A stretch of 64,000 bases of DNA from Nitrospira tepida (GTDB lineage: Bacteria; Nitrospirota; Nitrospiria; Nitrospirales; Nitrospiraceae): assembly GCF_947241125.1 (NCBI RefSeq), contig NZ_OX365700.1, positions 3,132,001 to 3,196,000 on the forward strand, in the 5' to 3' direction. Position 1 is the first letter of the stretch; the number at the start of each line of letters is the position of its first letter. This document shows positions 7,209-43,793 of the stretch, piece after piece. A program made the translations under genes and the position numbers. The notes under the pieces were generated by a model. That model was not told where the DNA came from. It ran no database searches and saw only the letters and a program-made list of their open reading frames with translations.

Positions 7209-8746
7209 CCCTATTCTCCGGCTAAGCGGGGCTGAGCGCCAGGATTTTGCTTCGCGCCAAGGCCAAAAGGGTCTGTTGGACCGCTGCTGTGAGGCGCAAG
7301 AGCGTGCGGCGGGCATGATGGATGACTGTGCCGACCGTATTGAACACCAGAAATCGCAGCCGCTTCGGCCGGGCGTCGGAGAAATCTCCGGGTAGCGCGA
7401 GGCGCTTCAACGCGCTGAGCAGGTTATACGTGAGCACGTTGAGCCGGAACCAGGCGGCATTGGCGCCAAACTTCCCACTGGGCAGGGCCTCTGCCGCCAA
7501 CTCGTTCTTGAGGACATGATGCACATGCTCCACCGTCCCGGCCTTCTCTCGATGCCAGCGGATCAGGGAGCGACCGTCGCCCTCCCGGTTGGTCACGATC
7601 GCGAAGTGTTTCGCGGTGCTGCCATCCGCGAACAGCTCGCCTTGGCGGTGTCGCACGCGAATCGCCAAGTAGCGCCGCGCGCAAGGCCGACCCTTCCGGT
7701 AGTCCTTATCATCGGGGACAGAGGGCACCTCGGCCCACTCGCGGATCATATCCGGCTCGTCGCGGTCTGGTTGCCAGGCGGTCCCCGGCAGCCGCTCGAT
7801 CTCGGCCCGCAACGGCGGGCTCATGTCCGCGCTGATTGCGTAGCCGATCCCTCGCGCCGGCTCCTCGCACCACGCCAGCACCTCCTGTTCATACAGGGCG
7901 CTGTCGCCCCGGACGAAGAGCTGCTCCACGCCGGCTGGCAACGCCGCCACGGCCCGCTCCAGGATGCGCACGTTGCCGCAGCCCGCCGGCACGTTCCCAT
8001 CCCGGAATTCGTCGTGGACGACCAGGTCCTGCTCGGCCCAGACGACCACGACGGGTTGATAGCCCGACGTGCCCTCGTACGTCACCGTCGCCGTGCGCTT
8101 GTGGGCTTCCAGGATCGTGGCATCCACATCCAGCGTGGCGGTGCGCTGCGGCATCTGCTGCTGCACCGCGGCGAGGATGCGCCGGTTCGCGGCCCCCACG
8201 CCCGCCAAGGGCGCCGACTCCTCGGGCACGGCCGTCTGCTCGCCAGCACGCAGCAACGGGAGATCCTCGACATGACACGCCTCCAAGAAGTCGCGCATCG
8301 TGGTGGCCGCGGGCAGCTCATAGCCCAGCAGGGCGGCCAGTGCGGCATCGGCGCGCAGGGTCGTGAGGTCCTGGCAGCGGTCCCCGCCCGCCGCCCACAG
8401 CGCGATCAGCGTCTCCACCCACTGCGCCGACGTCACGCCGCGCTGCCGCTGTTTGATCCGGACCTGCTCATCGACGACCTGCGCCGCTCCGACGCGGCGA
8501 AACAGCTCGATCACCAAGGGCACGCCCGCATGCGCGGTGACCAGACGGGGATCAATGCGGTCGTCAATCTCGAACGGCAGCCGAGGACTCGCAAACGGCT
8601 TCTCAGGCATCAACCTCCTCCTTGGTTGGCGAATCACCCATTGGGTGAATCACCTCGCAAGGCTGATGCCATGCGGTCCCCTGCTGCTCATGCGTCCAGA
8701 CCGATTCCGTGTCCATCACGGTTGGGAGCTTAGCCGGAGAATAGGG
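7209..8746 (-). mobile_element. IS1380-family insertion sequence, complete
   Basis: The element is 1538 bp. Its ends are a perfect 19-bp inverted repeat, CCCTATTCTCCGGCTAAGC at 7209-7227 and its complement at 8728-8746. A 5-bp direct repeat, GGAGG, flanks it at 7204-7208 and 8747-8751 and is best read as the target-site duplication. It contains one intact transposase gene on the minus strand. A TCACCCATTGGGTGA palindrome lies upstream of that gene inside the element. The perfect ends and intact gene suggest a recent insertion. Confidence 0.95.
7222..8610 (-). CDS. IS1380-family DDE transposase
   Basis: This transposase moves the surrounding element by a DDE mechanism. It is about 462 residues from the ATG at 8610, chosen because AAGGAGGAGG sits directly upstream; a longer frame reaches 8637. 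Family features include the acidic catalytic context TATLDVDATILEAHKRTATV, the motif LFVRGDSALYEQE, and the C-terminal region around KAGTVEHVHHVLKNELAAE. The stop codon lies inside the left inverted repeat, so the coding sequence fills almost the whole element. Confidence 0.93.
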   Translation of the reverse strand: MPEKPFASPRLPFEIDDRIDPRLVTAHAGVPLVIELFRRVGAAQVVDEQVRIKQRQRGVTSAQWVETLIALWAAGGDRCQDLTTLRADAALAALLGYELPAATTMRDFLEACHVEDLPLLRAGEQTAVPEESAPLAGVGAANRRILAAVQQQMPQRTATLDVDATILEAHKRTATVTYEGTSGYQPVVVVWAEQDLVVHDEFRDGNVPAGCGNVRILERAVAALPAGVEQLFVRGDSALYEQEVLAWCEEPARGIGYAISADMSPPLRAEIERLPGTAWQPDRDEPDMIREWAEVPSVPDDKDYRKGRPCARRYLAIRVRHRQGELFADGSTAKHFAIVTNREGDGRSLIRWHREKAGTVEHVHHVLKNELAAEALPSGKFGANAAWFRLNVLTYNLLSALKRLALPGDFSDARPKRLRFLVFNTVGTVIHHARRTLLRLTAAVQQTLLALARSKILALSPA

Positions 8747-8780
8747 GGAGGCGCCATTTGGTCCAATTTGCAAGGCGGCA

Positions 8781-37154: not shown

Positions 37155-38417
37155 TCAGGCGCGTACCGTCGCGGGAGAGTCCTGAGGGATCGACGCGAGA
37201 CGCTCGGCCCGGTCTTGATCGCTCACGCAGAACAAACCGGTGGCAACCAGAATCCAGAACAGATTGGCCAGGCTCCCGATGAACATGTAGTCGAATACAT
37301 TCCGCACGGCGAATCCCACCACCATCAGGGCTGCGCCGAACGGTATTGCTCGGGACGCGCCGTCCGAGAGCGCTCCGACCGCGCGAGTCAGGATCAGGAA
37401 TATCCGGATCAACAGCCAGGCGAAGAATGCCAAGGCCGGCACCCCGCTGCCCAACCCCACCACGACGAACGTGCTGTGCGGCCCATAGGCCTTCTCCAAT
37501 TCAGGCCGTCCGGCATACCGTTTCACAAAGTTGCTGTTGCCGTAGCCGATCCCGACGAGCGGATGGTGCACGAGGTCCTCCGCCGCCAGTTTCCACACGG
37601 CTACCCTGGCCTCCAAGGTCCAGGGATCCGCCGTGCTTCGTTGAAATCCCCTATCCGAGGCGAGGACGAAGCCGAAGCCGATCGCCGTCAAGGCCAAGAT
37701 CACTCCGGCCAACAGCCAGCGCCGCCCGGAGAGCCAACCGCCCGCGAGGCCCTCGGCCGCGAGCCCGGCCCAGCCGGCTCTCGTATAGGCCACGACCTCG
37801 GCGGCCAAGGCCACGACGGCCACTACGAGCGAGAGCCCTTTCATCCATCGAGTCCGCACGACGACCGCCGCCGCCAGCACCATCGGAATCGCCATGACCA
37901 TGTAAGTGCTCAGCCAATTGTAGTCCGAGCCGGGCGCGCCGGCCCGCACGTGACGATCCCGCCAGGTTCCGCCCTGCAGGATGAATTCGACGATCGCGTA
38001 ACCGGCGCTCGTCACGGTCCCAAGCAGCACGGCGATCATGACGTGCCTCACCAGACGATGGTCCGGTTGCGCCCGGAACACGGCCACCGCCCAGTAGAAC
38101 ACCAGCGCCTGCCCTGCCAGCTTGCGCCATTCCCGAAAACTGTAGGCCGGATCGATCGAAAACGGAATGCTCAGCAGAATCCACCCGAGAAACAGCAGCA
38201 GCGGCAGGTCGAGCGGCGTCCGAATCCAGAGCGAGGCCCCTTCCTTCCACCGTGCCGCCGCCGCGATCAGGAGGAGCGAAAAAAACAGGTACCGCGCGGG
38301 ACCATGAGCCGGCGGGATGAAATTCAGGAACGTGAGGACGGCCAGGCCGATGCCCTGCGCGGTCCAGACCCGATGCCGCCAGAGCAGTTCCGCATGCGTC
38401 AAAACGGGCGCGGCCAT
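37155..38417 (-). CDS. O-antigen ligase-like membrane protein (WaaL/Wzy_C family)
   Basis: A polytopic protein of about 420 residues with some ten hydrophobic helices. A large periplasmic loop near residue 270 contains VAVWKLAAEDLVHHPLVGIG and YGPHSTFVVVGLGSG, as in O-antigen ligases and polymerases. It would join the exported glycan to lipid A core or another acceptor. The ATG at 38417 is chosen because an upstream ATG at 38429 lies within the end of the adjacent MITE-like repeat. No strong ribosome binding site is visible. Confidence 0.85.
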   Translation of the reverse strand: MAAPVLTHAELLWRHRVWTAQGIGLAVLTFLNFIPPAHGPARYLFFSLLLIAAAARWKEGASLWIRTPLDLPLLLFLGWILLSIPFSIDPAYSFREWRKLAGQALVFYWAVAVFRAQPDHRLVRHVMIAVLLGTVTSAGYAIVEFILQGGTWRDRHVRAGAPGSDYNWLSTYMVMAIPMVLAAAVVVRTRWMKGLSLVVAVVALAAEVVAYTRAGWAGLAAEGLAGGWLSGRRWLLAGVILALTAIGFGFVLASDRGFQRSTADPWTLEARVAVWKLAAEDLVHHPLVGIGYGNSNFVKRYAGRPELEKAYGPHSTFVVVGLGSGVPALAFFAWLLIRIFLILTRAVGALSDGASRAIPFGAALMVVGFAVRNVFDYMFIGSLANLFWILVATGLFCVSDQDRAERLASIPQDSPATVRA

Positions 38418-38422
38418 CTTAA

Positions 38423-38632
38423 CCCACATTATTCATGAGCAATTCTGCTGCAATTGTGGATTCGCCGCTGCGACTAGCCAACATGCGGCCTCGACGGCCC
38501 GTTGGCGGGCGGGCTCGCCGCTCGATCGGTCAACAGACTGTTTCAAGTCTGCCTCCCTTCCTCGCGGCTCCGCGCGCCCGTCTCGCGTGGCGACTCCGCA
38601 ATTTCGCGACGAACTGTCATGAATAATGTGGG
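38423..38632. repeat. MITE-like element with 16-21-bp inverted ends and TTAA flanks
   Basis: A 210-bp non-coding element lies between rmlD and the ligase gene. The perfect inverted ends including flanks run TTAACCCACATTATTCATGA (38419-38438) and its complement (38617-38636). TTAA on both sides could be the target duplication. Beyond the ends, the arms stay imperfectly complementary for about 30 bp, as expected of a foldback element. The right TTAA supplies the rmlD stop codon. A diverged copy of one arm is at 43717-43793. Confidence 0.88.
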
Positions 38633-39490
38633 TTAAGTCGCGACAGGGCCGGCGGCGGTCGATTCGTGCGTCAGCAGATAGTCCTCCACCATCTCCCGCC
38701 ACCCGCGCATCGAGAGTCCAAGCGCCGGCAGCCGCTCGCTCGCCAGGGCGGTATTGGCCGGCCGCCTGGCCGGCCGGTTCAGGTCGGCGAACTGAATCGG
38801 CTCCAATGGGTGAGAGCGTCCGACCGACTTCAGAATGTGCTCCGCATATTCGAACCAATTGCAGGAGCCGGCTCCTGCCACGTGATAAATGCCGGTAGCC
38901 TTCCGTTCGGCAAGCCGCAGCATCGTTGCGACAAGGTCCTTGGCCAAGGTCGGGCTCCCGTATTTGTCGATCACCGCCCTCACCGGCTCCCCCTGGCGCA
39001 ACCGGTTCAGCACCATCGTGATGAAGTGATGCTTCCCAAGGCCGAACACCCACGCCGTCCGCACGAGACAGACCCGGTCCGTTTCGCTCAACGCGGCCTG
39101 CTCCCCGGCCAACTTGGAATGGCCATAGACATTAATCGGGTTCGGCCGATCGGACTCGACATAGGGGGCTCCCTTGTCTCCGTCAAACACATAGTCGGTG
39201 GAGATGGCGATGAGAAAGGCGCCGGCTTGGGCCGCACCCCTCGCCACCAGCCTGGTCCCTTCCTCGTTCACGCGATAGGCGGCATCAGGATCTCGCTCGC
39301 AGGCATCGACGTCGGTCATCGCCGCGGCATGGATGACGAGGTCGGGCTGTTCCCGCACGATGGTCTCGACAATCCGCCGGTCCGACACATCGTCTGTCCC
39401 ATGGGTTGCCAGATAGAGGGATTCACCTTTGAGCACGCGAGCGACCTCTTGCCCCACCTGGCCGTTCGCACCGGTCACGAACACGCGCAT
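38633..39490 (-). CDS. rmlD: dTDP-4-dehydrorhamnose reductase
   Basis: RmlD reduces dTDP-4-keto-rhamnose to dTDP-L-rhamnose. Motifs are VFVTGANGQVGQEVARVL, STDYVFDGDKGAPYVE, the active-site YGHSK and RTAWVFG. The ATG at 39490 fits the family N-terminus; the frame to 39523 adds residues encoded by heptanucleotide repeats. The stop codon TAA comes from the TTAA at the border of the MITE-like element, so the native end may have been slightly altered. Confidence 0.94.
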   Translation of the reverse strand: MRVFVTGANGQVGQEVARVLKGESLYLATHGTDDVSDRRIVETIVREQPDLVIHAAAMTDVDACERDPDAAYRVNEEGTRLVARGAAQAGAFLIAISTDYVFDGDKGAPYVESDRPNPINVYGHSKLAGEQAALSETDRVCLVRTAWVFGLGKHHFITMVLNRLRQGEPVRAVIDKYGSPTLAKDLVATMLRLAERKATGIYHVAGAGSCNWFEYAEHILKSVGRSHPLEPIQFADLNRPARRPANTALASERLPALGLSMRGWREMVEDYLLTHESTAAGPVAT

Positions 39491-39511
39491 CGTGCCGGTC
39501 CTTTCCCACTG

Positions 39512-39539
39512 CTCATTTCTCATTCCTCATTTCTCATTC
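39512..39539. repeat. Near-perfect heptanucleotide array (CTCATTT/CTCATTC)
   Basis: Four tandem 7-bp units alternate exactly: CTCATTT, CTCATTC, CTCATTT, CTCATTC. The array spans the gmd stop codon (39527-39529) and the spacer before the rmlD start. It has the same period as the GATTCAC arrays but another unit. Confidence 0.9.
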
Positions 39540-42468: not shown

Positions 42469-42485
42469 AGCCCGCATGATTCACG
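42469..42485 (+). repeat. Outer end motif of the accessory island (left copy)
   Basis: AGCCCGCATGATTCACG occurs here, and its exact complement occurs at 52772-52788, framing about 10.3 kb of accessory DNA. The motif resembles the ends of the MITE-like element at 38.4 kb (complement CRTGAATMATGYGGGYT). It is followed by a small hairpin CACGATATTCGTG. Confidence 0.75.
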
Positions 42486-42695
42486 ATATTCGTGGTGTGC
42501 ACCCGTTGCAGCAACGGAGAAACAGTCAACCGGAAGATGCCTCGCGAGTAGGGTCCTTCTAGCACATACATGAGCCCGCTGGGAAGAAGATCCGAACCGC
42601 CCCGGCTTCCTACACAGCTCGCTCGGGCACCTGGCGTATCTAATGCCGCTACGTCTGTGCCCGAGCCGGCGGTGACACCTACCCCTCTCGGTTGT
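42486..42695. other. Non-coding start of the accessory island
   Basis: No gene is recognised between the left end motif and the SGNH hydrolase remnant. A minus-strand open frame through this stretch reads out to VNHAG and a stop within the end motif, but the protein has no family character. Confidence 0.4.
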
Positions 42696-43198
42696 AGCAG
42701 GCATGGCCAGATGTGCGCATCCTCAACGCCTCGGTCACCGGTTATAACCTCGCCGATTACGCCAATGTCCTGGAAACAATCCTGCCGACACAGCCGGTGG
42801 AAGGGATCATCCTCGGCCTCTGCTTGAACGACGTGATCGGCGCCAGCCAAGCCAATATCCTGACCGTGCTGTCGAAACAGACAGACCACCGCCCGACCCA
42901 GGACCAGGCATCACAAACCGGGCAACAGGCGAAGCAACAACAAGAACAAGATAAGGTTCAGCTACTTGCTCAGCCGGGACCGATCGAAGTCAGCAAGGAC
43001 CGATATCCCAATCCCATCGTCCGGACGATCCGCTACATAAATGACAACTATTTCAACTTTAATGAAGCGCTCAAGCGATATTCCCGGACCTACCTGTGGC
43101 TGAAGAGCCTCGCGACCGACACGTCACGGGATTATTTCCAGGCCGATGCACTGGCCTACCGAGATGACGCAACCATGGCGACAGCCGCGAAGATCTGA
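42696..43198 (+). pseudogene. SGNH/GDSL hydrolase remnant
   Basis: The readable part (QAWPDVRILNASVTGYNL, EGIILGLCLNDVIG) corresponds to the middle of an SGNH hydrolase, including a block III-like LCLNDV. The N-terminal serine block is absent because a TAG precedes the remnant, and the end is cut at TAAKI and a stop, after which another frame continues briefly. It is one of the few plus-strand coding signals in this part of the window, so it belongs to the inserted DNA. Confidence 0.7.
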
Positions 43199-43399
43199 TC
43201 TGAAAGAAGGCGCTGGAATGGGGTTTGATTTCAGACGAGGGTTGATCCTACCAAGCATGCCGAGCCCCAGAAAGGAATATAATGCTCCTCGTCACAACTG
43301 ACACCGATGATGCCGGCGGCAATGGTTGAAAACATCTGCCGGTGGGAGTTAAGGGACTGATTACGGGTCGTTCCAGAATTTCGGAGGATCTCTGACAGA

Positions 43400-43565
43400 C
43401 CTGTTCTCCTTCATGGCTGGTTGGGTCAGTATCGGGGGAGGGACTGTTGCGGTCATAGCTGAAGCGATTCAGATCTTGCGGCCGCCGCGGATCGGACACG
43501 ATCGTGCCGGGCGAGAGGAAGCGGCCCAAGGCCGGGTCGTCGTAGCGCGTGCCGTAATAGTGCAG
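43400..43565 (-). pseudogene. Rhs core remnant
   Basis: The minus strand encodes LHYYGTRYDDPALGRFLSPG and then TIVSDPRRPQDLNRFSYDRN, which matches the conserved end of the Rhs-associated core. It is aligned with YYEARYYDPTLGRFISAD of the Rhs fragment at 51216-52718. Nothing upstream in frame continues the Rhs repeats, and downstream text up to 43248 is not recognised. It is a fragment of a second, different Rhs gene. Confidence 0.8.
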
Positions 43566-43740
43566 CCGAGACCCTCCTCGCGGAGGTCCGCCACATTCAA
43601 AGACTGTGTCGGATCCTCACCAGCAAGCTGACGGATGAGGACGAGGAAAACGAAGAGAGCGAAGTCGCCCACCGCTTAGCGCTGATTGGCGACAAGAGCG
43701 ACGACCTGATCAACGGCATCACACACATGGCCGGCTTGGC
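43566..43740 (+). pseudogene. Coding-like remnant of unknown protein
   Basis: In one plus-strand frame a helical, charged stretch is readable (AETLLAEVRHIQRLCRIL, TDEDEENEESEVAHRLALIG). It has no start codon in a credible context; the left side abuts the Rhs remnant and the right side runs into the MITE-like arm. I do not recognise the family. Confidence 0.4.
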
Positions 43741-43793
43741 GCAGCGGCGAATCCGCGATTGCAGCAGAAGCGCTCATGAACAATGCGCGCTAG
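43717..43793. repeat. Diverged single arm of the MITE-like repeat
   Basis: CGCAGCGGCGAATCC, ATTGCAGCAGAA and GCTCATGAA occur here in the same order and spacing as in the complement of the MITE left arm at 38423-38490. The terminal part reads CATGAACAATGCGCGCTAG instead of CATGAATAATGTGGGTTAA. No matching second arm was found nearby, so this is a relic. Confidence 0.75.

What the first reader, a model, noticed from the sequence alone, without database searches (positions are those of the whole stretch)
38419..38636. MITE-like foldback element between rmlD and the O-antigen ligase gene
Perfect 20-bp inverted ends bounded by TTAA, imperfectly paired arms and a 210-bp non-coding core are the hallmarks of a MITE. 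It supplies the rmlD stop codon and leaves an ATG (38429) in frame with the ligase. No transposase with these ends is present in the window, so the mobilising partner is unknown.
Basis: seen in the sequence. Interest (0 to 1): 0.6.

Follow-up and report, generated by a model that had tools for sequence, protein, structure and literature searches.

The report
MITE mobilised by an IS1380-type transposase
A 210-base non-coding jumping element, one of dozens of relatives in this Nitrospira-family bacterium, has landed exactly in the stop codon between two sugar-coat genes, and the missing enzyme that moves such elements is most likely an IS1380-type transposase found in related species.

Summary
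Window 38423-38632 is a 210-bp foldback element with 16-bp perfect ends and a TTAA duplication. It belongs to a large MITE family in this genome: 164 end sequences, none for the reversed-pattern control. The family also occurs in 32 of 60 relatives searched. I identify the unknown partner as a 1.7-kb IS1380-family insertion sequence in other Nitrospiraceae, with the same ends and a 4-bp YTAR duplication. No copy with these ends was found in this genome, whose own IS1380 copies have different ends. The true target is YTAR (CTAG, TTAA, TTAG, CTAA), not TTAA alone. A relative has the empty site: rmlD and the ligase gene lie one base apart there with no insert. The rmlD stop codon is therefore the target site itself and was not supplied by the MITE; about 40% of family members sit at such stop codons. 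The foldback is strongly conserved: 32 of 66 base pairs show compensatory change. Two other mobile pieces exploit the family: an IS110 element (7 of 10 identical copies lie in the MITE core) and a 28-bp dispersed hairpin. This is a new member of a known kind. The effect on the ligase gene is inferred only.

The parts
38419..38422 (.). left copy of the 4-bp target-site duplication TTAA (YTAR type), 1 nt from the native ligase ATG (38417 on the - strand)
   Evidence: sequence; TSD statistics
38423..38438 (+). left terminal inverted repeat CCCACATTATTCATGA (16 bp); holds an in-frame ATG (38429, - strand) that adds MWVK to the ligase ORF
38439..38616 (.). non-coding core with covarying arms and two internal hairpins
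   Evidence: covariation in 30 copies; fold
38617..38632 (-). right terminal inverted repeat (16 bp, perfect)
38633..38636 (.). right copy of the TTAA duplication; on the - strand it contains the rmlD stop codon TAA (38633-38635)
37155..38429 (-). O-antigen ligase/polymerase family gene (Wzy_C), native ATG probably 38417
   Evidence: PF04932 E 7e-12; homologue start in G020
38633..39523 (-). rmlD (dTDP-4-dehydrorhamnose reductase)
   Evidence: PF04321 E 3.5e-85

Best explanation
This is a non-autonomous MITE moved in trans by an IS1380-family (DDE) transposase that recognises ends of the form CCCRCATTATTCATGA and inserts at 4-bp YTAR sites, which it duplicates. Here it entered the TTAA made of the last base before the rmlD stop plus that stop (TAA), one base ahead of the ligase start codon (TTAA-G-ATG). 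Because the target contains TAR, the duplication re-creates the stop codon, so insertion at gene 3' ends leaves the upstream protein intact. Shown: family membership, ends, duplication, empty site in a relative, an IS with matching ends, foldback conservation. Inferred: the catalytic step by this IS (never assayed), and that the 210-bp hairpin uncouples or lowers ligase translation by placing a stable stem directly before its start codon.
For: There are many copies at 93-73% identity, and 164 ends with 0 in the control. Flanking 4-mers are YTAR on both sides in 30 of 45 elements and identical in 22 of those 30, against 10.4 expected if the sides were independent. Three pairs of copies are 100% identical at different loci, which suggests recent movement. 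In G020 (L204) rmlD and the ligase gene are joined without insert, TGA-A-ATG, with proteins 69% and 60% identical. IS1380 elements L117-L124 (transposase E about 1e-125) are about 1.7 kb, carry ends YTAR|CCC..AT.ATTCA.GA, and L120 shares its right end CCCACATTATTCATGACGGT with MITE copies. 26 of 64 elements sit where TAR ends an open frame of at least 150 codons, against 15 of 91 YTAR sites in the window (Fisher p 0.0008).
Against: No partner IS with these ends was found in this genome, so mobilisation must be past or from elsewhere. Homology to the IS is limited to about 20-24 bp at the ends. No transposition was observed. The empty site comes from another genus at 68% DNA identity, so it shows the arrangement without insert but not the exact ancestral site. 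The stop-codon excess may reflect selection against insertions inside genes, not target choice. No promoter or terminator motif was found.
Confidence: 0.85

Rival explanations
1. The repeat is now mainly a functional structured element (RNA or cruciform DNA, as proposed for ERIC or Correia repeats) kept for mRNA processing or stability between operon genes; mobility is only its origin.
For: 32 of 66 pairs show compensatory change, 96.7% of cells are paired, no shuffle reaches the covariation score and slid controls collapse to 28-41%. The fold is strong on the transcribed strand and copies sit at gene 3' ends.
Against: Copies are numerous, some are identical, and many copies have different lengths (36-450 bp) or nested inserts. 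Matching arms can also be kept by transposase recognition at the ends or by template-switch correction of imperfect palindromes.
Confidence: 0.2
2. A transposase of another family (for example an IS5-group or IS701 element, which also make YTAR-type duplications by general knowledge) moves the MITE.
For: The 4-bp YTAR duplication is shared by several families (general knowledge).
Against: No IS701 hit in the genome. The IS4/IS5-type loci examined carry other ends. The IS1380 elements of relatives carry the matching ends.
Confidence: 0.08
3. The inverted repeat is a chance or purely local structure (operon attenuator) unrelated to mobile DNA.
For: It lies between two operon genes and folds strongly.
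Against: Dozens of copies at unrelated sites with target duplications and an empty site in a relative.
Confidence: 0.01

Closest known systems
IS1380-family insertion sequences (Pfam DDE_Tnp_1_4)
   Same: 16-bp ends CCC..AT.ATTCA.GA and 4-bp YTAR duplication; the L120 right end matches MITE ends for about 20-24 bp
   Different: The MITE has no transposase gene and no clear similarity inside; both its ends resemble the IS right end
Bacterial MITEs such as ERIC, Correia/NEMIS and the MITEs reviewed in PMC10969869
   Same: Short, non-coding, foldback, high copy, largely between genes, target duplication
   Different: Different ends; IS1380 and Nitrospira are not mentioned in that review; the insertion here is within a stop codon
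piggyBac (eukaryotic)
   Same: TTAA-type duplication and ends beginning CCC; IS1380 transposases serve as outgroup for piggyBac trees (PMC10813416)
   Different: Eukaryotic; here CTAG, TTAG and CTAA are used as well as TTAA

Membership tests
MITE | short, non-coding, no transposase | tested here: met
   210 bp; only short overlapping ORFs, no room for a transposase
MITE | terminal inverted repeats | tested here: met
   16 bp perfect plus palindromic TSD
MITE | target-site duplication | tested here: met
   TTAA here; identical 4-mers (all YTAR) on both sides in 22 of 45 copies
MITE | multiple copies at unrelated sites, empty sites exist | tested here: met
MITE | ends shared with an autonomous IS | tested here: met
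   IS1380 elements L117-L124 in relatives
IS1380-mobilised element | transposed by an IS1380 transposase | not testable with these tools
   needs an excision or insertion assay
Derivative of this genome's own IS1380 copies | same ends and same duplication length | tested here: not met
   ends CCCTATTCTCCGGCTAAGC, 5-bp GGAGG duplication

The most novel reading that the evidence does not exclude
The family is a mobile, selectively maintained RNA/DNA foldback that prefers stop codons as landing sites. It becomes part of the 3' untranslated or intercistronic region of many genes without breaking them, acting as a portable operon-spacing module, and in turn serves as a landing pad for an IS110 element and a dispersed mini-hairpin.
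Probability: 0.2. Interest if true: 0.6.

Novelty: new member of a known kind. Interest (0 to 1): 0.42.

Why it matters
It links a large repeat family of nitrite-oxidising Nitrospiraceae, for which I found no published name, to a specific transposase family, which makes mobility testable. It shows how a YTAR-targeting element can insert exactly at a stop codon without harming the gene, and it gives a natural case of a stable hairpin splitting a one-base stop-start junction in an O-antigen operon.

Tried and rejected
IS701 transposase in the genome: none. DDE_Tnp_1 loci: all ends examined differ from the MITE's. Own IS1380 copies as partner: ends and duplication length differ. The interrupted IS1380 next to a MITE at 2.347 Mb: it has the other end type, so the neighbourhood is chance. 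The 1.35-kb 'full-length' element at 2.769 Mb: an IS110 inserted in a MITE, not the autonomous partner. Ligase protein scan of GTDB contigs: no relative found. Plasmid records: no match. Promoter and terminator scan: nothing. Cross-phylum contigs with the same end: mostly other short MITEs, and only one contig carries the transposase. Literature searches for a named Nitrospira MITE, an IS1380 MITE or IS insertion at stop codons gave no matching description in the held library.

Full report
Observation. The inverted repeat at 38418-38438 / 38617-38637 is real and perfect. Read with the family, it splits into a 4-bp target duplication (TTAA), a 16-bp terminal repeat CCCACATTATTCATGA and a 178-bp core; the element is 38423-38632, 210 bp. 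It folds far below shuffles (z = -7.8 as DNA). The end occurs 164 times in the 4.73-Mb genome, balanced 82/82 between strands, while the reversed control gives none. DNA comparison finds about 40 relatives at 93-73% identity.

Mobility. Among 45 reconstructed copies, 35 left and 37 right flanks are YTAR (CTAG, TTAG, TTAA, CTAA); 30 have YTAR on both sides and 22 of these are identical, against 10.4 expected if the two sides were independent. Three pairs of copies at unrelated loci are 100% identical and others differ by one or two bases. Lengths range from 36 to 450 bp, leaving out copies with an IS inside.

Empty site. Joining the flanks at one TTAA and searching 175 genomes of the family gave one contiguous match across the junction, in G020 (L204; 68% identity over 847 query bases). 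There rmlD and the ligase gene (proteins 69% and 60% identical) are separated by one base: TGA-A-ATG. The window without the element reads TAA-G-ATG, the same spacing. The rmlD stop codon is thus the target itself; the MITE did not bring it. The element adds an upstream in-frame ATG (38429, giving MWVK), but the native ATG is most likely 38417.

Partner. The genome has no IS701 transposase, and its DDE_Tnp_1 loci carry other ends. Its own IS1380 copies, one of them at window 7223-8748, have ends CCCTATTCTCCGGCTAAGC and a 5-bp duplication. In other Nitrospiraceae, however, the best-scoring IS1380 elements (L117-L124, about 1.70 kb) are bounded by YTAR and CCC..AT.ATTCA.GA. The L120 right end, CTAA CCCACATTATTCATGACGGT, matches MITE ends for about 24 bp, and both MITE ends resemble that right end rather than the left one. 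The transposases are unambiguous members of PF13701. I take such an IS as the partner, at about 0.85 confidence, with the caveat that it was not found in this genome and no assay was done.

Distribution. Ends with YTAR occur in 33 of the 61 genomes searched, which include the window's own: most of the Nitrospiraceae and a few of the order outside it, up to 37 forward hits in one genome apart from this one. The same end is found in named Nitrospira genomes including N. moscoviensis, in short elements of Acidobacteriota, Planctomycetota, Gammaproteobacteria and others, and in two viral contigs.

Structure. Thirty copies of about 210 bp from own and related genomes give a consensus fold in which 32 of 66 pairs show changes on both sides with pairing kept; 96.7% of cells pair, against 86.0% in shuffles and 28-41% when partners are slid. 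Relatedness and arm correction by template switching can produce this without selection on RNA, so I treat a functional structure as a rival, not a result.

Stop codons. In 26 of 64 copies the TAR of the duplication ends an open frame of at least 150 codons, against 15 of 91 YTAR sites in the window (p = 0.0008). The control includes sites inside genes, where insertion would be selected against, so this shows where copies persist rather than where they prefer to land. Effect at this locus: the base of the hairpin ends next to the ligase ATG, so reduced or uncoupled ligase translation is a reasonable inference that was not tested.

Other mobile pieces. A 1.15-kb IS110-family element is present in 10 essentially identical copies, 7 of them at the same point in the core of these MITEs. 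A dispersed hairpin ACCCRTTGC-N-GCAAYGGGT occurs 64 times in the genome, mostly inside these MITEs where examined, and up to 103 times in relatives.

Verdict. The new parts are the partner family, the YTAR target, the empty site and the correction about the stop codon. It is a new member of a known kind.

Noticed in passing
L037:1645-2790 and nine further copies (L193-L202): An IS110-family element (PF01548, PF02371) in 10 copies, essentially identical; 7 of 10 sit at the same point in the core hairpin of this MITE family, so the MITE core looks like its target.
   Followed up: partly
own genome, e.g. G000:C1:13918-13945; L035:1010-1105: A dispersed 26-32 bp hairpin ACCCRTTGC-N-GCAAYGGGT: 64 copies here, up to 103 in relatives. 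42 of 51 examined lie inside these MITEs, at several positions, replacing about 8 bp without an obvious duplication; one sits in the loop of another. Its mobiliser is unknown.
   Followed up: partly
window 42471-43789: A 1.3-kb segment bounded by decayed ends of the same family with CTAG on both sides; one MITE arm is preserved at the right and the interior holds what look like gene fragments (no Pfam hit for the 161-aa ORF).
   Followed up: no
window 7223-8748: IS1380 element of another subgroup with ends CCCTATTCTCCGGCTAAGC and a GGAGG duplication; four full copies and one interrupted copy in the genome.
   Followed up: partly
L342:801-1044: A viral contig (IMG/VR) carrying a paired set of these ends about 240 bp apart, a possible vehicle between hosts.
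   Followed up: no
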